A stretch of DNA of 64,000 nucleotides, taken from Bacteroidota bacterium. Lineage in GTDB: Bacteria; Bacteroidota; Bacteroidia; Chitinophagales; Chitinophagaceae. Shown here piece by piece: positions 815-57,130 of the stretch; within the stretch, counting starts at the first letter, position 1; the number at the start of each line of letters is the position of its first letter. Below the pieces are notes generated by a model. That model made no database searches. It had not been told where the DNA came from and saw only the letters and a list, made by a program, of their open reading frames with translations. A program made the translations under genes and the position numbers. Location of the stretch: NCBI GenBank assembly GCA_013286315.1, contig JABDFX010000006.1, forward strand, positions 1 through 64,000. The letters are read 5' to 3'.

Positions 815-973
815 AAGCGAAGGCTAAGGCTTAAGGCGAAGGCCAAGTATAATGTGGTGAATATGGAAGCGTAAGGATGTAGGAATTCAAAATGGAAAAA
901 GGAAATGACAATGTACTCTCCCACATTTACCACACCTGAAAAAGCCTTAGCCTTGGGCCTTAGCCTTAGCGAT
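815..973. repeat. Composite palindromic intergenic element with nested inverted arms
   Basis: Outer arms: 815-847 aagcgaaggctaaggcttaaggcgaaggccaag and 941-973 aaagccttagccttgggccttagccttagcgat. Inner arms: 851-866 aatgtggtgaatatgg and 920-936 cccacatttaccacacc. The right outer arm covers the stop codon of the 966-2909 gene. Confidence 0.8.
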
Positions 974-9357: not shown

Positions 9358-10296
9358 ATGAATATTGCATTAGATATGATGGGCGGAGACTTTGCACCGG
9401 ATGAGCTGGTAAAAGGTATCCGTGATTATTTATCAGAAAAAAAACCTGCACTTGTATCGCTGATCGGTGATGAGCAGCTGCTCTTACCTCTTTTGAACCA
9501 ATACGAGGTTCCCGCCGGCGCATACCGAATCATTCCGACTACGGAAGTGATCGGCATGCACGAGCATCCTTTAAAGGCTTTAAAGGGAAAGCCCGATTCA
9601 TCCATTGCAGTCGGTTTTGGTTTGCTTGCAGCCGGTAAAATAGACGCGTTTATCAGCGCCGGAAACACCGGTGCGATGCTGGTCGGCTCGCTGTATACTA
9701 TTAAACCGATTGAAGGAATTCAAAGACCCACGATCGGGACGATTGTTCCGATGGAGAATGGAGCCACGGGCCTGCTGCTCGATGTGGGCGCCAATGCGGA
9801 TTGCAAAGCCGAACACCTGAATCAGTTTGCGACGCTTGGTTCACTCTACGCTAAATATATCCTGGGTATTGAAACACCGCGTGTGGGTCTGCTCAATATC
9901 GGTGAAGAAGAAGGAAAGGGAAACGTGCTCGCGCAGGCAACGTATCCTTTGCTAAAAGAAAATAGCCAGATACATTTTATCGGTAACGTAGAAGGCAGAG
10001 ATGTTTTCCTCGATCATGCGGATGTGCTGGTATGCGAAGGGTTTACCGGAAACATTATCCTCAAGCTGGCCGAATCCCTGCATGGCATCATGGATCGTCA
10101 AAAAGTCAAGAACGAATATTTCGACCGCTTCAACTTCGAAGATTATGGCGGCACGCCGGTACTCGGTGTTAACAAACCGGTGATCATCGGTCACGGGATC
10201 TCACGTGCAAAAGCATATAAAAATATGCTGCTGCTTGCGCAGAAAATGATTGAGACACAGCTACTCGAAAAAATGGCATCGGCTTTCCAGGCCTAA
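9358..10296 (+). CDS. plsX: Phosphate acyltransferase PlsX
   Basis: MNIALDMMGGDFAPDELVKG...SAGNTGAMLVGSLY...DVLVCEGFTGNIILKLAES, with conserved rpmF-plsX gene order. Confidence 0.95.
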   Translation: MNIALDMMGGDFAPDELVKGIRDYLSEKKPALVSLIGDEQLLLPLLNQYEVPAGAYRIIPTTEVIGMHEHPLKALKGKPDSSIAVGFGLLAAGKIDAFISAGNTGAMLVGSLYTIKPIEGIQRPTIGTIVPMENGATGLLLDVGANADCKAEHLNQFATLGSLYAKYILGIETPRVGLLNIGEEEGKGNVLAQATYPLLKENSQIHFIGNVEGRDVFLDHADVLVCEGFTGNIILKLAESLHGIMDRQKVKNEYFDRFNFEDYGGTPVLGVNKPVIIGHGISRAKAYKNMLLLAQKMIETQLLEKMASAFQA

Positions 10297-10410
10297 ACCC
10301 AAAGCCTAAAGTCTAAAACTAATTTTCAAATTTGCAAATAAAATAATTTTAAGGTCAAATCTTGAAATGAAATTCAAGGTTCCAAAAAGAAGTCTTGGGC
10401 TTTAGGCTTA
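10291..10410. repeat. Palindromic intergenic element, CCTAAAGC type
   Basis: Left arm 10291-10320 gcctaaacccaaagcctaaagtctaaaact contains the plsX stop codon. Right arm 10389-10410 gaagtcttgggctttaggctta has reverse complement taagcctaaagcccaagacttc. Confidence 0.75.
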
Positions 10411-10412
10411 AA

Positions 10413-10805
10413 AAAGGCTACCGGCTCATAAGCCGGATTCTGTTCCAATGCCATCATTTATCTGGCCCTTTCATTACTGAAAGGATCTAGCTGCCTACCC
10501 ATCACGCAAACATTGCTGTTTATGAACGAGCCGCTCACCCCGCTTTCGCGAAGCGTAATTTACATGGCATTTCAGCATGCAAGGTTTACCCGCAACATAC
10601 ATCACTGTATGAAGCCGTAGGCTCTTACCCTACGTTTTCACCCTTATCCCGCCGATGGCGGGATGGTTATTTTCTGTGGCACTGTCTGTATCAGGAGCCC
10701 TTGCTGTGATGACCCCGGCTCTTAACCGGTACATTGCTCTTTGCTGTCCGGACTTTCCTCCATCCCGCCGAAGGCGGGATAGCGATGGCCCGGCCGGTAG
10801 CCGGC
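10413..10805 (-). ncRNA. rnpB: RNase P RNA (class A bacterial)
   Basis: Minus strand contains GAGGAAAGTCCGGACAG near the 5' end and ACAGAATCCGGCTTATGAGCCGG near the 3' end. P1 arms 10793-10802 and 10416-10425 (GGCTACCGGC/GCCGGTAGCC) are perfectly complementary. End positions approximate. Confidence 0.92.
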
Positions 10806-10839
10806 GCAAATTTACAGTAATATCCTGGTAGACCCGTAT

Positions 10840-11001
10840 AAGTGTGGTGAATGTGGTGAGACTGGGAAATGTGGGAATTCAAAATGGAGAAAGGAAATGA
10901 CAATGTAAGGATGTGGAGATTGCACTATATTCTCAAACTATCGTTTCCAAATTTAACCTCCACATTCGCACATTTTGCAAGCTTCCACATTCACCACACT
11001 T
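10840..11001. repeat. Palindromic intergenic element, GTGGTGAAT type
   Basis: 17-bp perfect inverted arms AAGTGTGGTGAATGTGG (10840-10856) and CCACATTCACCACACTT (10985-11001). The interior shares a 34-nt block with the 815-973 element. Confidence 0.85.
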
Positions 11002-11019
11002 AAATGTGTGAATCATATA

Positions 11020-12036
11020 TTATAAGAATATTTCGGTAGCGCCGTACCCGTATCGCGGATCATACTGGTTGATGAAGGATCGTACTTCTCTGCGGGCATT
11101 CAGGATTTCATGTATTTCATCCTTTAGTTTGCCTTTACCCACTCCATGAATCACAATCAGGTTGTGCTGATGATGCGCAATCGCGAGATCCAGGTATTTT
11201 TCAAATGTATTCAGCTGCAGTGTCAGCATTTCAAAATTGGTGAGATTTCTCCAGTCGGGTGTCAGTTTCTCAATATGCAGATCCACTTCATATTTCGCTG
11301 GTTCCAGATGCTGGCGGCTATGCTTCGCATCGTATATCTTATTTCCGTTTCTGCCGGGCGCCTGGTATTCCGGTTTGTCCTCTTCCAAAGCCTTGTCCGG
11401 ATATCGATCAAATAACTTGTATGCAAAACTCGCTTCACCCTTTTTCCTGATTTCCTCAATACGCAAAAAGACCTGTTTCGCTTTTAATTTCAGCGATGTT
11501 TCAAAATGCGGCGCTTTTGATTTTTCGGCCTGCAGCAAACTGAAATCAAATTCAAAGACAGGCGCATCATTCAGGTTTTCGAAGGGAATATCATGCAGGT
11601 AAAACTCTTTCGATGCCGGAATTTCATTATTCAGACTAAAATCGGGTTTGCCGGCATAATTGAGTTTATAATGAAAGCTCAACCCTTTTTCCGTATGATT
11701 CACGAGATAAATCTTCAGGCTTTCGACGACTTCATCTCCGAATTCATCATCGTCCGACACGGGTAATATTCTCAGCCAGAAACCATCCTGCGGGTTGCTT
11801 GTTTTTTTTGATTTATCCGTGGGCAGCTGATCCACAAAAGTCTTTTCCTTTTTCAACGGAAGATTTTTCTTTTCAGAAAACCGTTTGAAATAGGGGAAAT
11901 CCAACTGGTCGATATAGGCCGGAAATCTTACTCCGCGCACTTCCACCAGCACCATTTTGTCATTGATCATCTCCACGACCTCTCCTTCCTCGTTGGAATG
12001 CAACACTGTTACTTTATCGCCGATTTCGAATTTCAT
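11020..12036 (-). CDS. DUF2027/Smr-domain protein
   Basis: C-terminal Smr signature EVDLHIEKLTPDW...LAIAHHQHNLIVIHGVGKGKLKDEIHEIL. N-terminal KFEIGDKVTVLHSNEEGEVVEMINDKMVLVE. Confidence 0.88.
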   Translation of the reverse strand: MKFEIGDKVTVLHSNEEGEVVEMINDKMVLVEVRGVRFPAYIDQLDFPYFKRFSEKKNLPLKKEKTFVDQLPTDKSKKTSNPQDGFWLRILPVSDDDEFGDEVVESLKIYLVNHTEKGLSFHYKLNYAGKPDFSLNNEIPASKEFYLHDIPFENLNDAPVFEFDFSLLQAEKSKAPHFETSLKLKAKQVFLRIEEIRKKGEASFAYKLFDRYPDKALEEDKPEYQAPGRNGNKIYDAKHSRQHLEPAKYEVDLHIEKLTPDWRNLTNFEMLTLQLNTFEKYLDLAIAHHQHNLIVIHGVGKGKLKDEIHEILNARREVRSFINQYDPRYGYGATEIFL

Positions 12037-12039
12037 CTT

Positions 12040-12160
12040 GTAAGCCTAAAGCCCTAAAGCCTAAAACCAGGGCTTTATGCAAAAAGCAATTTATTGAACT
12101 ACAAAATTAACACACTTTGACCTCCATATTCACACATTCGGTTTTAGGCTTTAAGCTTAC
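12040..12160. repeat. Palindromic intergenic element, CCTAAAGC octad type
   Basis: Left arm 12040-12068 gtaagcctaaagccctaaagcctaaaacc. Right arm 12140-12160 ggttttaggctttaagcttac. The arms match with one mismatch after removing one 8-nt unit. The right arm contains the stop codon of the 12157-13638 gene. Confidence 0.82.
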
Positions 12161-13638
12161 TTATTGCACCTAAAATCAGTGTTCAACTGATCCAGTTTTT
12201 GCCAGTTGGGATGATCCGATGATTTTGGCGAGATTTCAAATAATATGATGCTGTGTGTTTTATCCGGACAATCCTTTACGTGAATTTTTACATTCAAAAT
12301 CATCGGCTCCTGTTTAATATAATTCAGCATATGAACAGTGCCCGCGAAGGTTTTTAAATCTCCGGCAGAAGTCTTAGCATTTTGAATTTTGACTTCTACA
12401 GGGAATAATTTTTCCTTCGGTATTTTTCTGGGTTCGACATTTCTATCCAACAGACCGGAATATAAAAATGTCAGATTAGTCTGAAGTACCTGCGCATCAA
12501 CGTCAGGCCCGCCATCTAAAGACCATAAAAAGAGATATGACCAATGCTCTTCACTATTCGGATCACCCCATCCAGGGAAAAACCTGAGTTCTTCTACTCC
12601 TTTAAATGGAATTTTCTTCGCAAATCCAGGAGGTAATGCAAATCTTTCTATATCCCATTTCGCAGGGACGGGCAGCAGATAGATGGGCGAATAAGTTTGC
12701 GGATTAAATATTTTTAATTTCTTTTTTATCCATTGTATACAATCCGATTCATCATCGACAGACCATGCATACGGAGTCCTCAATCCGTTACTTCTGATTC
12801 CGGGTTGTTTGGATGAAACGAATTCTGCATCCGGGTTACCCGAAAGCAACAAACGATTTACTAATTCTGAAGCGTCCGGCATATAAGTGTCATAATAACT
12901 GTTGCGGCGATTCTGTAATTGCCATTCGATATCGGAGTCAAAATATAATCTCATAGCCACATGCTTCAGGAATTTTTCATTGCCCGGCGTCTGTGTATCC
13001 CTGGAAAATGGAGACAATTGATTATATTTCTCAGCATTTTCAGTATAGGATCCGTATTTTTTTGTAAGCGCACCGAGAATAATCTTTGCATCTCCCACAT
13101 CCCCTGCATAATAATCCTTTTTTATTTCGGCCTCACACCAGCGTGCGAGCCCCACGAGATCCACCGGACAGTTTATGGCAAATACGGCTTTCGGAACTAC
13201 CGGAAACCGCGACGGATTTTCATAACTTAATTCTGTGTAACGGAGTGCCGTATTCCCGGCATACATAAAACCTCCTAAAGCAAATTTGGATGTGTCAGCG
13301 GAATAATGTGTGATCACATGTTGTAATATCTGGTTTATGCGGTCGATTGATGAAGAATCTGCACAGAGGCTCTGGTCCAATGAAGCAATAATGGTCAGCA
13401 GGTCGTTACCGTAAGCAACATTTGCCAATTTGGATTCCGCCAGCACGAATTCGGGCGGATTAAAACTGGTCAGCAGAACCTGTACACCCTGGATATTACC
13501 TGACAGCGGACGCACTGCCAGATAATAATCATTCGCGCTATCCTTATTATTAAAAATGATTTTCTCTGAAAACTGGCTGAGCGCCTGCCGCGGGATAAAG
13601 AAAAGAACGATCAGGAAAACCAGATAACTTTTTAACAT
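12157..13638 (-). CDS. Secreted protein of unknown function, possibly alpha/beta-hydrolase-like
   Basis: Long ORF. The likely start is MLKSYLVFLIVLFFIPRQALSQFSEKIIF (signal peptide); the upstream ORF extension reads through the octad repeat tract and is probably not translated. Confidence 0.6.
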   Translation of the reverse strand: MLKSYLVFLIVLFFIPRQALSQFSEKIIFNNKDSANDYYLAVRPLSGNIQGVQVLLTSFNPPEFVLAESKLANVAYGNDLLTIIASLDQSLCADSSSIDRINQILQHVITHYSADTSKFALGGFMYAGNTALRYTELSYENPSRFPVVPKAVFAINCPVDLVGLARWCEAEIKKDYYAGDVGDAKIILGALTKKYGSYTENAEKYNQLSPFSRDTQTPGNEKFLKHVAMRLYFDSDIEWQLQNRRNSYYDTYMPDASELVNRLLLSGNPDAEFVSSKQPGIRSNGLRTPYAWSVDDESDCIQWIKKKLKIFNPQTYSPIYLLPVPAKWDIERFALPPGFAKKIPFKGVEELRFFPGWGDPNSEEHWSYLFLWSLDGGPDVDAQVLQTNLTFLYSGLLDRNVEPRKIPKEKLFPVEVKIQNAKTSAGDLKTFAGTVHMLNYIKQEPMILNVKIHVKDCPDKTHSIILFEISPKSSDHPNWQKLDQLNTDFRCNK

Positions 13639-13653
13639 AAACTTTTTCACTTT

Positions 13654-13759
13654 AGTATGGAAGAATGGAAGTCTGGAGGTCTGGAAGTCTGGAAGTATTA
13701 GTTTGAAAGTTAGTAAAAGTAGCACTTCCAGACTTCCAGACCTCCAGACTTCCAGACTA
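13654..13759. repeat. Palindromic intergenic element, GGAAGTCT/GGAAGTAT octad type
   Basis: 30-bp perfect inverted arms: 13667-13696 ggaagtctggaggtctggaagtctggaagt and 13724-13753 acttccagacttccagacctccagacttcc. Spacer is 27 nt. Confidence 0.93.
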
Positions 13760-16129
13760 TTCTGTTCTCAAGCTATCAACCGGATTTGCCACCGCCGCTT
13801 TTATTGATTGAAAGCTGACTGTAAATAATGCTATTAATATTGCCAGCAGACCCGATGCGATAAATACAACCCAACTTATATTAATTCTGTAAGAATAACT
13901 TTCCATCCATTTGTGCATGGCAACCCAGGCAACCGGAGATGCGATGATGATGGAAATAATTACAAGTATCACAAAATCCTTTGACAGCAATGCAGCGATA
14001 TTCGTAACACTTGCTCCTAAAACTTTTCTTACACCTATCTCTTTTTTTCTTGCTTCCGCCATATAGGTTGCTAGGCCGAATAACCCCAGACATGAGATAA
14101 ATATAGTAAGTCCTGCAAACAAACCTGCTAAAATGCCCGCACGTTTTTCATCTTCAAATTTTATCGCATAATCTTTATCTACAAAATTGCATATGAAAAG
14201 ATAGGCCGGGTCATACTTCTTGATAATTGCTTCCGTAGCTTTTAAGTTTTGTGCGAGGCCGTTTTTCTCGTTTAGTTTTATTTGAAAGATAGTAAACCAG
14301 CTCTTTGGCCCGTATATCAGCATGGGTTTGATTTCCTGGTAAGGAGACTCCAGTATGAAATCCTTTATCACACCGATCACATGCCATTGCCTGCCGTTGT
14401 CTCTTACAATCTGTCCGATCGGGTTTTTAAATTTCATCACTTTCAGAGCAGATTCATTCAGTATCATCGCCAGCGAATCGGTCGGATATTTTTGTACATC
14501 AATGTCACGGCCCATTATAAATTGTAAGCCGGCTGTTTTGCCCAGGCCGCCATCTTCATTGTATCTCCTGAAATCAGTTTTGTCGCTGGGGTCTTTGCCC
14601 TCCCATTCCTGCCCCCAGCCGTCACTCCAGCTTTGTGTAAGCGGTGCACTGGTTTTTGTAACAGAATGCGCAATGCCCGTTTGCAATAAATCATTTTTTA
14701 AAGACGAATAATTTTTTTCGATGGGATCACTAAGGTAAAAGTATATCAGGCTATTCCTGTCGTAGCCTGTTTGCCTGTCTTTAGCATAATCAATTTGCTG
14801 TTTTACAATGATGGTACAAATAATCAGTATAATGGCAAATGAAAACTGCAATACGACCAGCACTTTACGGGGAGCTATGAGTGCGTTTGTCTTCCTGAAA
14901 CTGCCTTTAAAAACTTTTACCGGTTGAAAGGATGAAAGAAAAAACGCAGGATAACTTCCTGCCAACAGTCCGGTAAAAATGATAAAACCCATAGCTGCCA
15001 GCCAGAAATAAAAACTCTGGAACGGAATGAACAACTCCTTTTGTGTAAGCTGATTAAAACCCGGCAGGCTGATCTGGACGATCAGGAGGGCGATAATACC
15101 TGCAATAAGCGCCAGAAAAATGCTTTCACCGATAAATTGTGTGATCAAAGAGAGTTTTTGCGCACCTGCCACTTTGCGAATGCCTACTTCTTTTGCACGT
15201 TTTTCGCTTCTCGCGGTGGAAAGATTTACAAAGTTGATACAGGCAATCATTAAAATAAATACCGCAATGATGGCAAATAACTTCACGAATGTAATCCGGC
15301 CACTATCGCTTTCATAGCCGTTTTCAAAATTGGAGAATAAATGCCAACGGCTGATTGGATATAAAAACAATTGCCAGCCGGCCTCTTTTCCCTTGTCATA
15401 ATATTTTTGCTGCAGCCATTTTATTTTGGGCTCCACGGAAGCGAGTGTCACATTAGGTTTCAGCAGGACATACGTAGTAGTACTGGTATTGCCCCAGTTA
15501 TCATCATCGCCACCTGTTTTTCTCAGGTAGCTCCAGGGCATTAAGTATTCAAAATCGAACTGGGTGTTGTTAGGCAGATCTTTCAAAATACCTGAGACTA
15601 TTAAATTATCAGTGTTGTTAATCCTGATTACTTTTCCGACAGCCTCTTCATTTTTACCAAAAAGTTTTATAGCAAGCTGTTTGGTAAGGACAATGTTGTA
15701 CGGATCATTCAGCACAGTTTCCGGGTTGCCTTCAATCAGCGGGAAACTGAATACCTGCAAAAAGTTTGAATCAACCATATTGCCCCGGATGGATAATTTT
15801 TTATCTCCGATGCTGAATATCGGGCTGCCAGACCAATTTACCCTTGCGGCCTGTTCCACCTCCGGCAAATCTTTTTCAAGTGTTCGCGCCATGGGCTTAG
15901 GCGTATTTATAAAGCTGGAAACCTTACCATCTAATTTTGTGCGATTCCATACTGCATATATGCGATTTCCCTTTTCATGGAACCTGTCAAAACTCACTTC
16001 ATTTTGTATCCACAATAAAATGATAATTGCGCTTGCCATGCCTATTGCCAAGCCAATAATATTAATGGCGGAAAAGCCCTTACTTCGCCAAAGGTTTCTC
16101 CAGGCCACTTTGATATAGCTTTTAAACAT
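13757..16129 (-). CDS. FtsX/MacB-type ABC transporter permease (large Bacteroidota family)
   Basis: MFKSYIKVAWRNLWRSKGFSAINIIGLAIGMASAIIILLW...NLSTARSEKRAKEVGIRKVAGA...EIGVRKVLGASVTNIAALLSKDF...AVANPVDSLRTE. Confidence 0.92.
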   Translation of the reverse strand: MFKSYIKVAWRNLWRSKGFSAINIIGLAIGMASAIIILLWIQNEVSFDRFHEKGNRIYAVWNRTKLDGKVSSFINTPKPMARTLEKDLPEVEQAARVNWSGSPIFSIGDKKLSIRGNMVDSNFLQVFSFPLIEGNPETVLNDPYNIVLTKQLAIKLFGKNEEAVGKVIRINNTDNLIVSGILKDLPNNTQFDFEYLMPWSYLRKTGGDDDNWGNTSTTTYVLLKPNVTLASVEPKIKWLQQKYYDKGKEAGWQLFLYPISRWHLFSNFENGYESDSGRITFVKLFAIIAVFILMIACINFVNLSTARSEKRAKEVGIRKVAGAQKLSLITQFIGESIFLALIAGIIALLIVQISLPGFNQLTQKELFIPFQSFYFWLAAMGFIIFTGLLAGSYPAFFLSSFQPVKVFKGSFRKTNALIAPRKVLVVLQFSFAIILIICTIIVKQQIDYAKDRQTGYDRNSLIYFYLSDPIEKNYSSLKNDLLQTGIAHSVTKTSAPLTQSWSDGWGQEWEGKDPSDKTDFRRYNEDGGLGKTAGLQFIMGRDIDVQKYPTDSLAMILNESALKVMKFKNPIGQIVRDNGRQWHVIGVIKDFILESPYQEIKPMLIYGPKSWFTIFQIKLNEKNGLAQNLKATEAIIKKYDPAYLFICNFVDKDYAIKFEDEKRAGILAGLFAGLTIFISCLGLFGLATYMAEARKKEIGVRKVLGASVTNIAALLSKDFVILVIISIIIASPVAWVAMHKWMESYSYRINISWVVFIASGLLAILIALFTVSFQSIKAAVANPVDSLRTE

Positions 16130-16345
16130 TTCTTATGGGATTTTGCCAAAATGTACAAAGGAAATGCCAGCTTAAACTTCTGCTATTTTCAAACCATACG
16201 TTTTAAGGTCGGGGTAAATGTGTTCACTTATGATACAGAAGTGTCCGCTTTTATTACAACTTAAAATTGATTTGTTTCATGGAAGTCATTGGTATGTGGG
16301 TAAATAAGATTGCCGTCTTTGGTTGGCGTATTACTTGTGGGCTGA

Positions 16346-16422
16346 GAGTATGGACGTCTGGAAGACTGAAAGGCAACTCGAGACCAACATACATACTTCC
16401 ATACTTCCATTCTTCCATACTC
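16346..16422. repeat. Octad-type inverted element in a divergent intergenic region, next to a start codon
   Basis: Left gagtatggacgtctggaagactgaa (16346-16370). Right acatacttccatacttccattcttccatactc (16391-16422). The ATG of the next gene is at 16435. Confidence 0.75.
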
Positions 16423-16434
16423 AAAAAGTAGGCT

Positions 16435-18837
16435 ATGTTAAATAATTACCTGGTGATCGCCTGGCGCAATCTGAGTAAACACAAATTGTATTCAGCCATT
16501 AACATCGTCGGGCTGGCGATTGGAATGGCGGCCTGCATTGTCATTACATTATTTGTGTACTATGAAAGAAGTTTTGACAATATGCACAGCAAAAATATTT
16601 ACCGGCTGAATGAGGTTCAGAAATTCCCCGGCATGGTGTCTTCTCAAAAAGTGGCGCTATCCATGTTTCCTATGGGACCTACGCTAAAAGAGGATTTTCC
16701 GGAGGTTTTGCATTATAGCCGGGTACGCTGGGATGGCATTTACCAAATGACTTTCTGGGAAAAAAGAATCTACCTGCCGCAGATCTTTTTTGTGGATACC
16801 GCTTTTCTTTCCATGTTCGATTTTCCATTGCTGAAGGGAAACCGACAGACTGCCTTACTCAAACCAAATAGCGCCGTGATAACGGAATCAGCATCACGCA
16901 AATTATTCGGCAACGAAAATCCGATGGGTAAAACGGTTTATCATTACGGCGGTGACACCTCTGCTTTTATAGTTACCGGAATTTTACGGGATGTTCCGGA
17001 CAATTCCCAGTTTCAATTTGACGCGCTGTTTTCCTTCAATACGGTCTATAAGCCTGACTGGATGAAAAACTGGGGCGGCAACTGGCTGAACACGTATCTG
17101 GAACTCGCTCCCCATACCGATATGGCCGCTATGGAGAAAAAATTTCCTGACTATCTTAAAAAACATATGACAGGTGATAATCAGGGGTGGAAATATTATG
17201 AATTATTCCTGCTTCCTTTTCGCGATGTGCATGCAAATGCCGCTGATATCGGACTTGACTACATTAACTATCAGAAATTCGACAAGAGCTACACCAATAT
17301 ATTTATGATCATCGCGCTCATAGTACTGGCGATCGCATGTATTAATTTTGTGAACCTTTCTACCGCCCGTTCTTCAGAAAGAGCCAAGGAAGTGGGTATC
17401 CGGAAGTCGATTGGCGCCCAGCGTTTTCAATTGGGCTTACAGTTCCTGGGCGAGACGGTATTTCTGTCTCTGTTGGCCCTGATATTTGCAATGCTCATGG
17501 TTTTTCTGATTCTTCCCTATATCGCCAGCCTGAGCCAACGAAATCTTCGGCCGTTATTGCTGGAACATCCGGGATTAATTGTTTCTGTAATCATCGGAAC
17601 GATTGGAGTCGGTCTGATCTCCGGCATCTATCCGGCTTTCTACCTGTCCTCATTTCGGCCCTCAAAAGTATTAAAAGGATCTGCATCGGATGGAGGTAAA
17701 AAAGGAGGTTTCCGCAATATACTCGTGGTTGGTCAGTTTGTTAGTGCCATTTTTTTAATCATTTCAACTATTTTCGTTTTTCGTCAGTTCAATTTTATGC
17801 AGCATCGGGATCCCGGATTCTTACGGGATCAGGTGGTCACCATTCCGCTTGACCAGATGACTTTTCGCAAATTTGATTTGCTAAAGGAAGAACTGTCTGC
17901 CAGTCCGCTCGTCGCCGGGGTTACCGCCGCCCAGGATCAACTCGGCAGCCACCTGGACCAATCGGGTGTTGAATTTCGCGGTGACGGACCTCTGCGAAAT
18001 TTAACTTCAACCCGGCTTATTGTTGACCCCGATTATTTAAACCTCTACAAGATTAAACTTGCTTATGGAAGAAATTTTTCGAATGCAAAGCAGGACAATG
18101 GAAAAGAATACATCATCAATGAAGCCCTCGCGCATGAGCTGTTAAAAGATAACTCCAAAACTCCGGTCTCTTCGCTGATCGGAAAACATTTCGGCTTTGA
18201 TTCGCTTGGATATATCGTGGGTATTGCAAAAGATTTTAATTTCAATTCGCTCCATTACAAAATTGAAACGATGTTTCTTTTCAATCAGAAAGAATGGGGA
18301 TTCAGTACGCTTTCCGTAAAAATTAAAGGTCCTGAGGCAGCCAAAGCCATTTCCTTTATTCAGGCTACCTGGAAAAGCATTTTCCCGGAAAGTCCTTTCG
18401 AATATCAATTTCTCGACGATCATTTTAAAGAAGTGTATCGCACCGATGCGCAGATCACTCAGATGGTAGGTATCCTGGCCTTTCTGGCTATTTTGATTTC
18501 ATGTTTGGGTTTGTTTGGACTTGCTTCTTATTCTGCAGAAAGAAGGGTAAAGGAAATCGGCGTTCGTAAGGTGCTCGGCGCTTCGATGTCAAGTATTATA
18601 TCTCTCCTGTCCACTCATTTTATTAAACTGGTCATCATTGCCAATGCGATCGCCTGGCCCCTGGCCTGGTATACCGTTCATCTCTGGATGCAGGATTATG
18701 CTTATCGGTTGCCCATGAGCTGGTGGGTATTCATTTTGTCCGGTGCCGTCGCCATGATCATTGCGCTGGCAACAGTTAGTCTGCTGGCTGTCAAAGCGGC
18801 TGCTGCAAATCCGGTTACAAGCCTTCGTTCTGAATAG
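16435..18837 (+). CDS. FtsX/MacB-type ABC transporter permease
   Basis: MLNNYLVIAWRNLSKHKLYSAINIVGLAIGMAACIVITLFV...ERAKEVGIRKSIGAQRFQL...EIGVRKVLGASMSSIISLLSTHF...AANPVTSLRSE. Confidence 0.92.
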   Translation: MLNNYLVIAWRNLSKHKLYSAINIVGLAIGMAACIVITLFVYYERSFDNMHSKNIYRLNEVQKFPGMVSSQKVALSMFPMGPTLKEDFPEVLHYSRVRWDGIYQMTFWEKRIYLPQIFFVDTAFLSMFDFPLLKGNRQTALLKPNSAVITESASRKLFGNENPMGKTVYHYGGDTSAFIVTGILRDVPDNSQFQFDALFSFNTVYKPDWMKNWGGNWLNTYLELAPHTDMAAMEKKFPDYLKKHMTGDNQGWKYYELFLLPFRDVHANAADIGLDYINYQKFDKSYTNIFMIIALIVLAIACINFVNLSTARSSERAKEVGIRKSIGAQRFQLGLQFLGETVFLSLLALIFAMLMVFLILPYIASLSQRNLRPLLLEHPGLIVSVIIGTIGVGLISGIYPAFYLSSFRPSKVLKGSASDGGKKGGFRNILVVGQFVSAIFLIISTIFVFRQFNFMQHRDPGFLRDQVVTIPLDQMTFRKFDLLKEELSASPLVAGVTAAQDQLGSHLDQSGVEFRGDGPLRNLTSTRLIVDPDYLNLYKIKLAYGRNFSNAKQDNGKEYIINEALAHELLKDNSKTPVSSLIGKHFGFDSLGYIVGIAKDFNFNSLHYKIETMFLFNQKEWGFSTLSVKIKGPEAAKAISFIQATWKSIFPESPFEYQFLDDHFKEVYRTDAQITQMVGILAFLAILISCLGLFGLASYSAERRVKEIGVRKVLGASMSSIISLLSTHFIKLVIIANAIAWPLAWYTVHLWMQDYAYRLPMSWWVFILSGAVAMIIALATVSLLAVKAAAANPVTSLRSE

Positions 18838-18844
18838 TGCGGGC

Positions 18845-18919
18845 AAGTATGGAAGTATGGAAGTACTGATAACTAATCAACTGCACTTCCAATCTTCCAT
18901 ACTTCCATTCTTCCATACT
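18845..18919. repeat. Palindromic intergenic element, octad GGAAGTAT type
   Basis: Left aagtatggaagtatggaagt (18845-18864). Right acttccaatcttccatacttccattcttccatact (18885-18919). Confidence 0.85.
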
Positions 18920-18972
18920 AGTTGCGCCACGGTACAGATTTTGCAGCTCTATGAGTCAACAATCTCATTTTC

Positions 18973-19506
18973 ATGCGAATCATTTTATTCGTTTTACTGT
19001 CGATCGTCATTCATCCGTCTGCCGGTTTTTGTGTAAAAATTGCTTTTTACCCAAATGCAATGGCTGACAGCAATTATTTCGGCAATGCGACAGTCTCTTA
19101 TACCATAAATGGTAAAAAAACCAGTATAAAAAATATGCTGCAAACGGACGGACAAAATATCAAGGCGTTGCATTTAAATGTGGTGAGTCTGATTCCAAAA
19201 GGCAATCTGGTGCGTGTGAATTTTACAAACTCACTGACGCATGAAGTTTTTGATTTCGTCGTGGCCGATAAGGGCACTACGGTTATTCAGCATTACAAAC
19301 CCAGGCTGACGGTGCAGGAAGAAAAAAAGGCAACATATATGTCTGAAAAGCTCGTGAATTATTATGCCGACAATTGTAAAATCGAAATCATTACTGCGGA
19401 TGAAAAACATGTAGTCGGAAAATTTTCCGGAGCATTTGTTGCGGATGATGGAACACGCATCAGGATTATGTCCGGGAGCTTCGATATTCCCATCAACGAA
19501 AAATGA
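18973..19506 (+). CDS. Secreted protein of unknown function
   Basis: 177-aa ORF with N-terminal signal peptide MRIILFVLLSIVIHPSAGFCVKIAF. Confidence 0.6.
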   Translation: MRIILFVLLSIVIHPSAGFCVKIAFYPNAMADSNYFGNATVSYTINGKKTSIKNMLQTDGQNIKALHLNVVSLIPKGNLVRVNFTNSLTHEVFDFVVADKGTTVIQHYKPRLTVQEEKKATYMSEKLVNYYADNCKIEIITADEKHVVGKFSGAFVADDGTRIRIMSGSFDIPINEK

Positions 19507-19508
19507 AG

Positions 19509-19605
19509 CACAAGTATGGAAGAATGGAAGTATGGAAGTACTACTATAACTAACTTTCAAACTAACACTTCCATACTTCCATTCTTCCATACTTCCATAC
19601 TTGTG
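19509..19605. repeat. Palindromic intergenic element between convergent stop codons, octad type
   Basis: Left arm 19509-19539 cacaagtatggaagaatggaagtatggaagt. The right arm 19567-19605 is its reverse complement with exactly one extra 8-nt unit. The flanking stop codons end at 19506 and 19608. Confidence 0.92.
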
Positions 19606-19607
19606 AT

Positions 19608-21281
19608 TCAACTTGGTCTGTCGGCCAGTTTACTCTTCCTTCTCCCGTATAAAATATAAATAGAGAGCCCCACTCCCATCCAAATGAAGAATACCATCCA
19701 GCTTTTTGCAGGGATTTCAATCATAAGATATAAACAACATAAAACACCCAGCACGGGAATTACCGAATAGTTGCGGATAAATGTGAATATCGTAATGATG
19801 CATGCAGCAACGATGAACAACAGGAATAATATCTCCTGGTAAGACTCTCCGGTCATATTTGAAAAGGCCATCGCGATACGATGCCTGGCGGTAAGAAGAA
19901 AAATGGCCAGCAGGATCGGAATGATATATTTCCCATTCAGATAGGGAATGCTGAATTTCCCTGGAACTTTGATTAGTTTAGGCAGGTATAAAACACCACC
20001 GCATACCAGCACAAAAGCAAACAGGGTTCCGATGCTGGTGAGATCCGTCATCAACCGGTCATCCACAACCAAAACCGGTATGCCCACAAATAATCCGGTT
20101 ACAATGGTTGAAAATCCGGGTGTTTTAAATCTCGGACTGATACGGCCAAATGGTTTCGGAAGAAGCCCATCGCGACTCATACTCATCCAGATCCTGGGCT
20201 GGCCGATCTGGAAAACAAGCATCACAGAAGTGGAAGCAACCACGGCACTGATGGAGATGATAAATCCGATCTTATGCATATTGATCTTATCGAAAACATA
20301 AGCTAATGGGTCCGCAACAAATTCAAATTCTTTGTAATTCACCAAACCCGTTATCACCAGGGCCGTGATTACGTAAATAACGGTGCAGATTATTAAAGAA
20401 TACATCATGCCCTTGGGCAGATCTCTTTGCGGCATACGACACTCTTCTGCGGTTGTGGAGATCGCATCAAAACCGATATAAGCAAAAAATACAGAAGAAA
20501 CACTTTGCATGACGCCTGCCATACCTTCCGGAAGAAAGGGTTTCCAGTTGCCTGTTGTACCCGTGGAAAAAATTAAATAAAATCCAACGACCGCGATAAA
20601 ACAAAGAACAACGAGTTTGAGGCCCACCATGAAATTCGCACTCTTGCGGCTTTCATTGATGCCTATATAGGCGAGTGCAGTGATCAGCATTACGATGACA
20701 AAAGCCGGCAGGTTGATGATAAATTTTACGCCAGCGATCTCGGGTGCATTCAGAAACACCATATCTGCAACCGGTTTATGGGCCTCCAATGCAGCCTGGT
20801 AGGTCATTTTCGCTGACTGGTATCCGATCGCCAGCCAGTCAGGCAAGTGAATGCCCATATTGCGGAGGATATTATTAAAATAAGCGCTCCAGGAAATCGC
20901 TACTACCACATTCCCGATGGCGTACTCAAGGATCAGTGCCCATCCGATGATCCATGCAATCACTTCACCAAAACTCACGTAAGAATATGTATAAGCGCTG
21001 CCGGCCACCGGAACGCGGGAAGCAAATTCTGCATAACAGAGTGCGGTAAACCCGCAGGTGACGGCTGTAATCAGGAAGAGAAAAATAACACCCGGCCCGC
21101 CATGGTAGGCAGCTGTACCGATCGTAGAGAAAATGCCGGCGCCGATAACAGCCGCGACACCCATGAAAGTCAGGTCCTTTACGCCCAGAACTTTCCTGAG
21201 CTTATGTTCATGCGCGTCACCCAACCCGGCTTCTGCATCTCTGACAATTTTATCTAAAGATTTTCTCCGGAAAATGGACAT
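19608..21281 (-). CDS. APC-family amino acid permease
   Basis: LRKVLGVKDLTFMGVAAVIGAGIFSTIGTAAYHGGPGVIFLFLITAVTCGFTALCYAEFASRVPVAGSAYTYSYVSFGE, with about 12 TM segments. Confidence 0.92.
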   Translation of the reverse strand: MSIFRRKSLDKIVRDAEAGLGDAHEHKLRKVLGVKDLTFMGVAAVIGAGIFSTIGTAAYHGGPGVIFLFLITAVTCGFTALCYAEFASRVPVAGSAYTYSYVSFGEVIAWIIGWALILEYAIGNVVVAISWSAYFNNILRNMGIHLPDWLAIGYQSAKMTYQAALEAHKPVADMVFLNAPEIAGVKFIINLPAFVIVMLITALAYIGINESRKSANFMVGLKLVVLCFIAVVGFYLIFSTGTTGNWKPFLPEGMAGVMQSVSSVFFAYIGFDAISTTAEECRMPQRDLPKGMMYSLIICTVIYVITALVITGLVNYKEFEFVADPLAYVFDKINMHKIGFIISISAVVASTSVMLVFQIGQPRIWMSMSRDGLLPKPFGRISPRFKTPGFSTIVTGLFVGIPVLVVDDRLMTDLTSIGTLFAFVLVCGGVLYLPKLIKVPGKFSIPYLNGKYIIPILLAIFLLTARHRIAMAFSNMTGESYQEILFLLFIVAACIITIFTFIRNYSVIPVLGVLCCLYLMIEIPAKSWMVFFIWMGVGLSIYILYGRRKSKLADRPS

Positions 21282-21286
21282 CTGTT

Positions 21287-21322
21287 AAGTATGGAAGTCT
21301 GGAAGTATGGAAGAATGGAAGT
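21287..21322. repeat. Single-arm GGAAGTAT octad tract immediately upstream of the permease start codon
   Basis: aagtatggaagtctggaagtatggaagaatggaagt. No inverted partner of this unit type seen within about 100 bp. Confidence 0.8.
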
Positions 21323-24543: not shown

Positions 24544-24617
24544 GGATCGGTAGTTCAGTTGGTTAGAATGCTGCCCTGTCACGGCAGAGGTCGCGGGTTC
24601 GAGTCCCGTCCGGTCCG
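24544..24617 (+). tRNA. tRNA-Asp (anticodon GTC)
   Basis: GGATCGGTAGTTCAGTTGGTTAGAATGCTGCCCTGTCACGGCAGAGGTCGCGGGTTCGAGTCCCGTCCGGTCCG. Acceptor GGATCGG/CCGGTCC pairs, the anticodon loop CTGTCAC contains GTC, and the T-loop is GGTTCGAGTCC. Confidence 0.95.
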
Positions 24618-56305: not shown

Positions 56306-57007
56306 ATGAAAAAAACGCCTCTAGTCCTGATAGTGGCCCTCCTATTTGCCTGCAATAATGGCCCGGCTAAAGAAGATCAAAAAACTGATACTGCGGCGGC
56401 GGTTGCTCCTGCTGAAGTGAAACCGGTGTTTACTCCATTCAAAGTCGTTATCGTGCAGCAAAAAGTGAAAAATTTCGGAAAAGCGGAAACAGAATATTTT
56501 AACCGGGACTCGCTCCGTAACACTTATGGAATTACCCACTATGTAATTGGTCGTGATGCAAAAGATTCCAACACTGTTTTTGTTGTCGACAAAATACAAG
56601 ACGAAGAAAAAGCGAAAGCTTTTTATGCCCTGCCCGGCGCGAAAGAAACTATGAAGAAGGCAGGTGTCATGAACCCTCCCGGATTTACATTTGCAGAATT
56701 CGTGACCGGCAACGATAACCCCGTGCAATACCTCGACGGTATGGCGATCACCCATCATGTAAAAGATTTCGGCACCTGGATGAAGGCTTTTGATGCTGAA
56801 GGCGATTCTGTAAGAAGAGCCAATGGATTAATAACTCGAGGTATCGCCCGTAATCTCAATGATTCCAACACTGTATCCATTTTATTCGAAGTCAGCGATA
56901 TGGCAAAGGCGAAAGCAAGATCCTCCAGCCCTGAGTTGAAAAAAATAATGACAGATGCCGGGGTGGATAGCCCTCCAACTGTCCGCTGGTACAAGCTCAT
57001 AAAGTAA
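56306..57007 (+). CDS. Lipoprotein with two tandem ~85-aa homologous domains
   Basis: Lipobox-like ALLFACNNG. Repeated pattern VKNFGKAETEYFNRDSLRNTYGITHYVIGRDAKDSNTVFVVDKIQDEEKAKAF... and VKDFGTWMKAFDAEGDSVRRANGLITRGIARNLNDSNTVSILFEVSDMAKAKAR.... Confidence 0.7.
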   Translation: MKKTPLVLIVALLFACNNGPAKEDQKTDTAAAVAPAEVKPVFTPFKVVIVQQKVKNFGKAETEYFNRDSLRNTYGITHYVIGRDAKDSNTVFVVDKIQDEEKAKAFYALPGAKETMKKAGVMNPPGFTFAEFVTGNDNPVQYLDGMAITHHVKDFGTWMKAFDAEGDSVRRANGLITRGIARNLNDSNTVSILFEVSDMAKAKARSSSPELKKIMTDAGVDSPPTVRWYKLIK

Positions 57008-57130
57008 GCGTAACGCTTAACGCGTAACGCGTAACGTTAGTGCTTTAGTGATCAGTTTCTTAGTCAGAACTCTATATGGCTGGGAAACTGATTTACTGGC
57101 CTTACGCCTTCGCCTTACGCCTTGGCCCTA
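57004..57130. repeat. Palindromic intergenic element spanning the gap between convergent genes, GCGTAACG/AAGGCGTA type
   Basis: Left gtaagcgtaacgcttaacgcgtaacgcgtaacgttag (57004-57040). Inner ATCAGTTTC/GAAACTGAT (57051-57059, 57084-57092). Right ggccttacgccttcgccttacgccttggcccta (57098-57130). Covers both stop codons. Confidence 0.78.

What the first reader, a model, noticed from the sequence alone, without database searches (positions are those of the whole stretch)
10291..21322. Family of modular short-unit palindromic elements that overlap or abut stop codons
Seen directly: intergenic elements at 815-973, 10291-10410, 10840-11001, 12040-12160, 13654-13759, 18845-18919, 19509-19605 and 57004-57130 share one architecture. 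Each has two arms built from short tandem units, inverted around a loop of roughly 20-130 nt. The unit differs between elements (GGAAGTMT, CCTAAAGC, AAGGCTA, GTGGTGAAT, GCGTAACG types), but both arms of an element carry the same unit. One arm covers or directly abuts a stop codon for plsX and the genes ending at 966, 12157, 13757, 57007 and 57128, and falls within a few nt for 19506 and 19608. Inference: they act as 3'-end elements (terminators or RNA-stabilising stems) whose arms expand by unit duplication while staying complementary, which needs a correction or templating mechanism. I recognise no named family matching this.
Basis: partly seen in the sequence, partly recalled or inferred. 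Interest (0 to 1): 0.85.

Follow-up and report, generated by a model that had tools for sequence, protein, structure and literature searches.

The report
Stop-codon-hugging tandem-unit palindromes
Short 7-8-letter DNA words, repeated in tandem and often mirrored into hairpins, sit right after the stop codons of over a tenth of this soil bacterium's genes, always in the same orientation, and similar arrays with different words recur in related bacteria; no machinery that makes or moves them was found.

Summary
In 1.26 Mb of the window's genome (a Chitinophagaceae MAG) there are 250 tandem arrays, against 9 after shuffling. 217 are intergenic, with period 7 or 8 in 205. They form 148 clusters whose edges lie a median 4 nt from a stop codon but 50 nt from a start; 119/1000 stops carry one, against 25/1000 starts. 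Polarity is nearly invariant: one strand of each unit reads in gene sense after the stop (101:7), and its complement comes later in the gap (61:1), even when the two arms carry unrelated units. Paired arms share variant units more than chance (50% vs 24.5%, p=0.001). Orthologous sites in a closer relative (G198) are empty, and occupied genes more often have a shifted stop (19/30 vs 38/146). Similar arrays with other units recur patchily in family and class. A terminator or stabiliser role is not: many arrays lack a partner, some gaps hold non-complementary arms, and classical terminators coexist. RAYT, reverse transcriptase and integron integrase were not found. Best reading: a non-autonomous dispersed repeat tolerated at gene ends, its arms kept complementary by replication template switching. 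The polarity is unsolved.

The parts
815..973 (.). AAGGCTA-type element; right arm covers the stop (966-968) of the - strand gene 966-2909
   Evidence: arms 817-843 / 944-970, 85% complementary
10291..10410 (.). CCTAAAG-type element between plsX (stop 10294-10296) and the 3' end of RNase P RNA; left arm covers the plsX stop
   Evidence: arms 10302-10326 / 10385-10409; fold z -4.6; site empty in L050/G198 and L033/G201
10839..11002 (.). GTGTGGTGAATG-type element between RNase P RNA and the gene ending at 11020
   Evidence: arms 10839-10856 / 10985-11002, 100% complementary
12040..12160 (.). CCTAAAG-type element between co-directional - strand genes; covers the stop at 12157-12159 and reaches 4 nt from the start at 12036
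   Evidence: arms 12055-12068 / 12140-12153; fold z -3.5
13654..13759 (.). AAGTCTGG octamer palindrome; right arm covers the stop 13757-13759 of the - strand gene
   Evidence: 31-nt arms 13666-13696 / 13724-13754, 100%; fold z -11.3; loop shares 17 nt with that of 19504-19610
   Evidence: arms 16346-16372 / 16396-16422, 78%
18845..18919 (.). AAGTATGG octamer palindrome 7 nt after the stop at 18837
   Evidence: arms 18846-18865 / 18900-18919, 95%
19504..19610 (.). AAGTATGG octamer palindrome running from the TGA of the + gene (19504-19506) to the TGA of the - gene (19608-19610)
   Evidence: arms 19504-19540 / 19574-19610, 92%; inner arms 100%; fold z -11.2
21287..21321 (+). lone octamer array just upstream of the - strand gene start at 21281
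57004..57130 (.). composite element between convergent genes: AACGCGT array after stop 57007, AAGGCGT array after stop 57128(-)
   Evidence: fold z -5.0

Best explanation
A family of dispersed, non-autonomous intergenic repeats whose building block is a 7- or 8-bp tandem array. SHOWN: arrays start at or within about 10 nt of stop codons, in one fixed orientation relative to the gene; about half have an inverted copy downstream that makes a hairpin; unit variants are mirrored between arms more than chance; at least two window copies share their loop as well as their arms, so whole elements are copied; sites are empty in a relative; the position of the gene's stop is shifted more often where an array sits. 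INFERRED: (1) copies enter or arise at gene 3' ends because that spot is tolerated, helped by units whose length is not a multiple of 3 and which often carry a sense stop codon, so the array can supply a new stop; (2) arrays grow and shrink by replication slippage; (3) inverted arms are made and kept complementary by template switching between arms at the replication fork. No dedicated transposase was identified; dispersal may use general recombination or replication or an unrecognised enzyme. Any effect on RNA 3' ends would be secondary.
For: Array excess 250 vs 9. Stop proximity, above a within-gap random-placement null for co-directional gaps (64% vs 31% within 10 nt; highest of 200 draws 48%). 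Orientation 101:7 after stops; start-adjacent arrays 22:0 the other way. L-before-R order 61:1. Recurrent unit orders, e.g. GCCTAAAGCCCAAAGCCTAAAGCCTAAAACTTTTTT, and the 17-nt loop match ACTAACTTTCAAACTAA between 13654-13759 and 19504-19610 (sequences). Arm covariation. Empty orthologous sites, e.g. 103 nt in G000 vs 35 in G198 vs 9 in G201; G198 has 7 intergenic arrays in 1.02 Mb. Stop position equals the G198 orthologue's in 11/30 occupied vs 108/146 unoccupied genes, Fisher p=0.00017. Sense-only vs antisense-only stop in the unit 51:12 pooled over four genome sets. Same-family L-R pairs 57% vs 15% shuffled.
Against: Tolerance alone does not explain why arrays lying 1-10 nt beyond the stop keep the same orientation (45:3). 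Octamer units such as AAGTATGG contain no stop in either direction. By distinct unit the sense-stop excess in G000 is weak (8 vs 4). No target-site preference for unit-like sequence was detected (0.677 vs 0.667). No precise insertion boundaries or target duplications were established, because the nearest relative (median 64% protein identity) is too diverged. No agent of dispersal was found. Arm identity is only modestly above that of other elements' arms (0.92 vs 0.879).
Confidence: 0.5

Rival explanations
1. Functional 3'-end elements: bidirectional terminators, insulators between convergent genes, or RNA-stabilising stems, selected at stops and kept complementary by compensatory selection.
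For: Position at stops; occupancy of convergent gaps 31% vs 14% co-directional vs 10% divergent; 37.5% of stops in convergent gaps with under 20 nt left over vs 6.8% co-directional; strong hairpins; fixed purine-rich 5' arm; recurrence in many genomes with other units.
Against: Over half of the arrays have no same-unit partner; composite gaps cannot pair; a classical terminator is conserved beside an element at C8:26995-27131 and C26:1060-1181; classical hairpin+T-run sites are about equally rare in occupied and unoccupied convergent gaps (1/41 vs 4/72); the same gaps are empty in G198; the convergent excess is partly circular because elements fill the gap.
Confidence: 0.27
2. A translation-level device: tandem 7/8-mers with sense stop codons give backup stops in all three frames just after the gene.
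For: 30/119 occupied vs 45/880 unoccupied genes have stops in all three frames within 27 nt; sense-only stop excess 51:12; period not divisible by 3.
Against: 31/119 occupied genes have no further stop in any frame within 27 nt; 48 of 111 stop-adjacent arrays have units with no stop in either direction; does not explain mirrored arms or arrays before starts.
Confidence: 0.08
3. REPIN-like elements mobilised in trans by a REP-associated tyrosine transposase (RAYT) or other single-strand transposase.
For: Hairpin doublets dispersed between genes, as in REPINs (PMC3116915).
Against: Y1_Tnp (PF01797) not found in the array-rich G000, G199, G200, G201, but present in the array-poor same-genus G036, G128, G197; only array-rich G202 has it. 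G000 is only 58.8% complete.
Confidence: 0.05
4. Independent in-situ birth at each gene end by slippage of the local sequence, followed by fold-back copying, with no dispersal.
For: 57 canonical units, many seen once; period 7/8 recurs with different units in many genomes; template switching can create hairpins (PMC8794818).
Against: Shared units and unit orders at unrelated loci, homologous loops; empty sites are no more similar to the unit than other sites.
Confidence: 0.1

Closest known systems
TAACTGA direct heptamer repeats of Beggiatoaceae, Cyanobacteria and five Bacteroidetes (MacGregor 2015, PMC4679880)
   Same: Intergenic tandem heptamers whose forward strand carries stop codons; gaps without obvious repeats in close relatives; other heptamers mixed in.
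   Different: Mostly one unit, mainly just upstream of start codons, almost never inverted (169 direct sets, 1 indirect). Here there are many units, placed after stops, often mirrored, with fixed polarity.
REP/REPIN elements with RAYT (PMC3116915)
   Same: Short dispersed intergenic palindromes, paired arms with a spacer.
   Different: No RAYT found in four array-rich genomes; arms are tandem 7/8-mers.
BrickBuilt MITE with a minisatellite, Porphyromonas gingivalis (PMC4596501)
   Same: Tandem repeat within a small inverted-repeat-ended intergenic element of a Bacteroidetes.
   Different: 23-nt unit, one array with small terminal inverted repeats, 19 copies, 49-591 nt from coding sequence rather than at the stop.
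Quasipalindrome template-switch mutation (PMC7202029, PMC8794818)
   Same: Mechanism that makes and perfects inverted arms, proposed here for the arms.
   Different: A mutational mechanism, not an element; does not explain stop adjacency or polarity.
Cyanobacterial short tandemly repeated heptamers and the heptanucleotide hairpin of the Nostoc tRNA-Leu intron (from memory, not tested)
   Same: Heptamers stacked in both arms of a hairpin.
   Different: Inside an intron or dispersed in cyanobacteria; no stop-codon rule known to me.

Membership tests
REPIN/RAYT | RAYT (Y1 transposase) gene in the genome | tested here: not met
   PF01797: none in G000, G199, G200, G201; G000 is an incomplete MAG
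REPIN/RAYT | inverted doublet forming a hairpin | tested here: met
Tandem heptamer repeats (TAACTGA type) | tandem heptamers in intergenic space | tested here: met
   158 of 217 intergenic arrays have period 7
Tandem heptamer repeats (TAACTGA type) | mostly direct, upstream of starts | tested here: not met
   119/1000 stops vs 25/1000 starts occupied; 98/217 arrays have an inverted partner
Intrinsic terminator | compact G+C stem followed at once by a T run | tested here: not met
   1/41 occupied convergent gaps holds such a site
Intrinsic terminator | transcript 3' ends at the element | not testable with these tools
   needs Term-seq or RNA-seq
Integron attC site | integron integrase present | tested here: not met
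   TIGR02249: no match above cut-off in 12 genomes; only weak general hits
MITE | terminal inverted repeats, copies dispersed | tested here: met
   loop homology
MITE | target-site duplication and a parent transposase | tested here: inconclusive
   nearest relative too diverged for exact empty sites; only Y1, RT and IntI families were searched
Retroelement-borne repeat | reverse transcriptase present | tested here: not met
   PF00078: none in G000, G199-G202, G051, G138
DNA uptake sequence | one fixed unit genome-wide, competence link | tested here: not met
   57 canonical units in 1.26 Mb; competence not tested

The most novel reading that the evidence does not exclude
A previously undescribed class of self-spreading tandem-heptamer/octamer repeats in Bacteroidia that is directed to gene 3' ends in a fixed orientation by an unknown, possibly transcription- or replication-coupled mechanism, and that keeps its two arms identical by templated copying.
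Probability: 0.3. Interest if true: 0.82.

Novelty: new variant of a known kind. Interest (0 to 1): 0.66.

Why it matters
Bacterial dispersed repeats are usually explained by a transposase or by selection as a signal. Here a large set with many different units obeys shared positional rules (after the stop, one orientation, left-type before right-type even when arms do not match), and no RAYT, reverse transcriptase or integron integrase was found in the array-rich genomes searched, apart from G202 (RAYT) and G071 (reverse transcriptase). It would give a natural system for watching hairpins being born and kept complementary, and a test of how gene 3' ends accept new DNA. Such arrays also move annotated stop codons.

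Tried and rejected
RAYT/Y1 transposase, reverse transcriptase and integron integrase searched as drivers: not found, or not tracking the array-rich genomes. Site choice by homology to the unit: no signal. Replacement of classical terminators: no difference. Stop supply as the sole cause of polarity: rejected, since arrays beyond the stop keep it. Rfam: no match for the elements. Single-unit searches in the family: GGAAGTMT in 2/198 genomes, GGTTGAC in 26/198, AATGTGCT in 44/198 with up to 482 hits in one genome; AATGTGCT in 9/247 of a phylum sample.
Full report
OBSERVATION. The window belongs to G000, a 3.31-Mb, 58.8%-complete MAG whose plsX relatives are Chitinophagaceae. The listed inverted repeats are present at the stated places. 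I pulled 1.256 Mb of the genome, called genes with a codon-usage script and scanned it. There were 77 strong inverted repeats against 6 in one dinucleotide shuffle; 72 lie outside genes and 40 have tandem arms. A separate tandem-array scan, which does not look at pairing, gave 250 arrays against 9 in shuffles; 217 are intergenic, with period 7 (158) or 8 (47), and they fall into 57 canonical units.

POSITION. Merged into 148 clusters, the arrays lie a median 4 nt from a stop codon (65% within 10 nt) but 50 nt from a start. In co-directional gaps 64% are within 10 nt of the stop, against 31% for random placement in the same gaps. 119/1000 stops and 25/1000 starts are occupied. Convergent gaps are occupied most (31%), then co-directional (14%) and divergent (10%). 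In convergent gaps 19 of 42 clusters reach both stops.

POLARITY. When two arms form a palindrome, each unit family shows one strand as the left arm almost without exception. With that strand named left-type, arrays near stops are left-type in gene sense 101:7, and start-adjacent arrays are right-type 22:0. In gaps holding both types the order is left before right 61:1, including 27 pairs from different unit families. For true palindromes this orientation at stops follows from the palindrome itself; the lone arrays and mixed pairs are the independent part. A version that needs no such definition: in sense, arrays after stops have G>C in 71 vs 32 cases in G000 and in 38 vs 4 in other Chitinophagaceae sets, while arrays before starts have C>G in 21 vs 5 and 10 vs 1. 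Units carry a stop codon in sense only vs antisense only 51:12. The bias does not depend on overlap with the stop: 45:4 at or before the stop end, 45:3 at 1-10 nt beyond.

COPYING. Particular unit orders recur at unrelated loci. The window elements 13654-13759 and 19504-19610 share 17 consecutive loop bases when one is reversed (ACTAACTTTCAAACTAA, sequences), while their arms differ in unit type in both arms. This means whole elements were copied and their arms then changed together. In 14 octamer palindromes found without requiring complementarity at the variable bases, the unit type at matched positions agrees in 50% of cases against 24.5% with shuffled partners (p=0.001). Across families own-arm identity is 0.92 vs 0.879 for other elements' arms, a modest difference. 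Left and right arrays in one gap are of the same family in 57% of cases vs 15% by shuffling.

COMPARISON WITH RELATIVES. G198 (plsX 88% identical) has only 7 intergenic arrays in 1.02 Mb. At 25 syntenic gaps occupied in G000 the G198 gaps that I could read show no comparable array (part of that output was cut); one example is 103 nt in G000, 35 in G198 and 9 in G201. Stop positions match the G198 orthologue in 11/30 occupied vs 108/146 unoccupied genes (Fisher p=0.00017). Classical terminators conserved in G198 remain next to elements at C8:26995-27131 and C26:1060-1181. Similar arrays with other units occur in G201 and G202 and in named loci of other Chitinophagaceae, where 65 of 81 intergenic arrays have period 7. 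The octamer AATGTGCT is abundant in some genera (up to 482 hits, control 0) and in two sampled genomes of other families of the class (128 and 42 hits). The distribution is patchy.

MECHANISM. Shown: dispersal of similar elements, stop adjacency, polarity, arm covariation, absence at orthologous sites, shifted stops. Inferred: tolerance at gene ends aided by units not divisible by three and often carrying stops; growth by slippage; arm copying by template switching, a known process (PMC7202029, PMC8794818). Not explained: why arrays beyond the stop keep their orientation, and what moves them. RAYT, reverse transcriptase and integron integrase were not found in G000; absence from a 58.8%-complete MAG alone is weak, but G199, G200 and G201 lack them too.

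CAVEATS. Gene starts come from a simple caller; stops are secure. G000 is a MAG, but arrays of the same kind are also seen in isolate records such as Taibaiella soli R1-15 (L106). No expression data were available. The comparison genome is too diverged to read exact insertion boundaries. The literature search covered open-licence papers only, so an earlier description in a subscription journal cannot be excluded.

Noticed in passing
window 10645-10666 and 10760-10781: Two copies of a G+C-rich palindrome (TCCCGCCGATGGCGGGA / TCCCGCCGAAGGCGGGA) inside the RNase P RNA gene, absent from the G198 orthologue; 5 such palindromes in 1.26 Mb of G000.
   Followed up: partly
window 10413-10801 (-) and 24544-24617 (+): RNase P class A RNA and a tRNA gene.
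   Followed up: yes
L034:7858-8053: A 64-nt nearly perfect, non-tandem inverted repeat with a 68-nt spacer.
   Followed up: no
G000:C26:12946-13134: Palindrome CAATGCCCGCATATGCGGGCATTG in spaced copies, a different repeat class.
   Followed up: no
G000:C1:6804-6994: The right arm of a GTGTGGTGAATG element lies in the loop of an AACGC palindrome, suggesting nesting of families.
   Followed up: partly
family search: The control (backwards) pattern GGCAGTTGGCAGTTGG itself is repeated in G176 (117 hits) and G074 (44 hits), so other heptamers are abundant in other genera.
   Followed up: no
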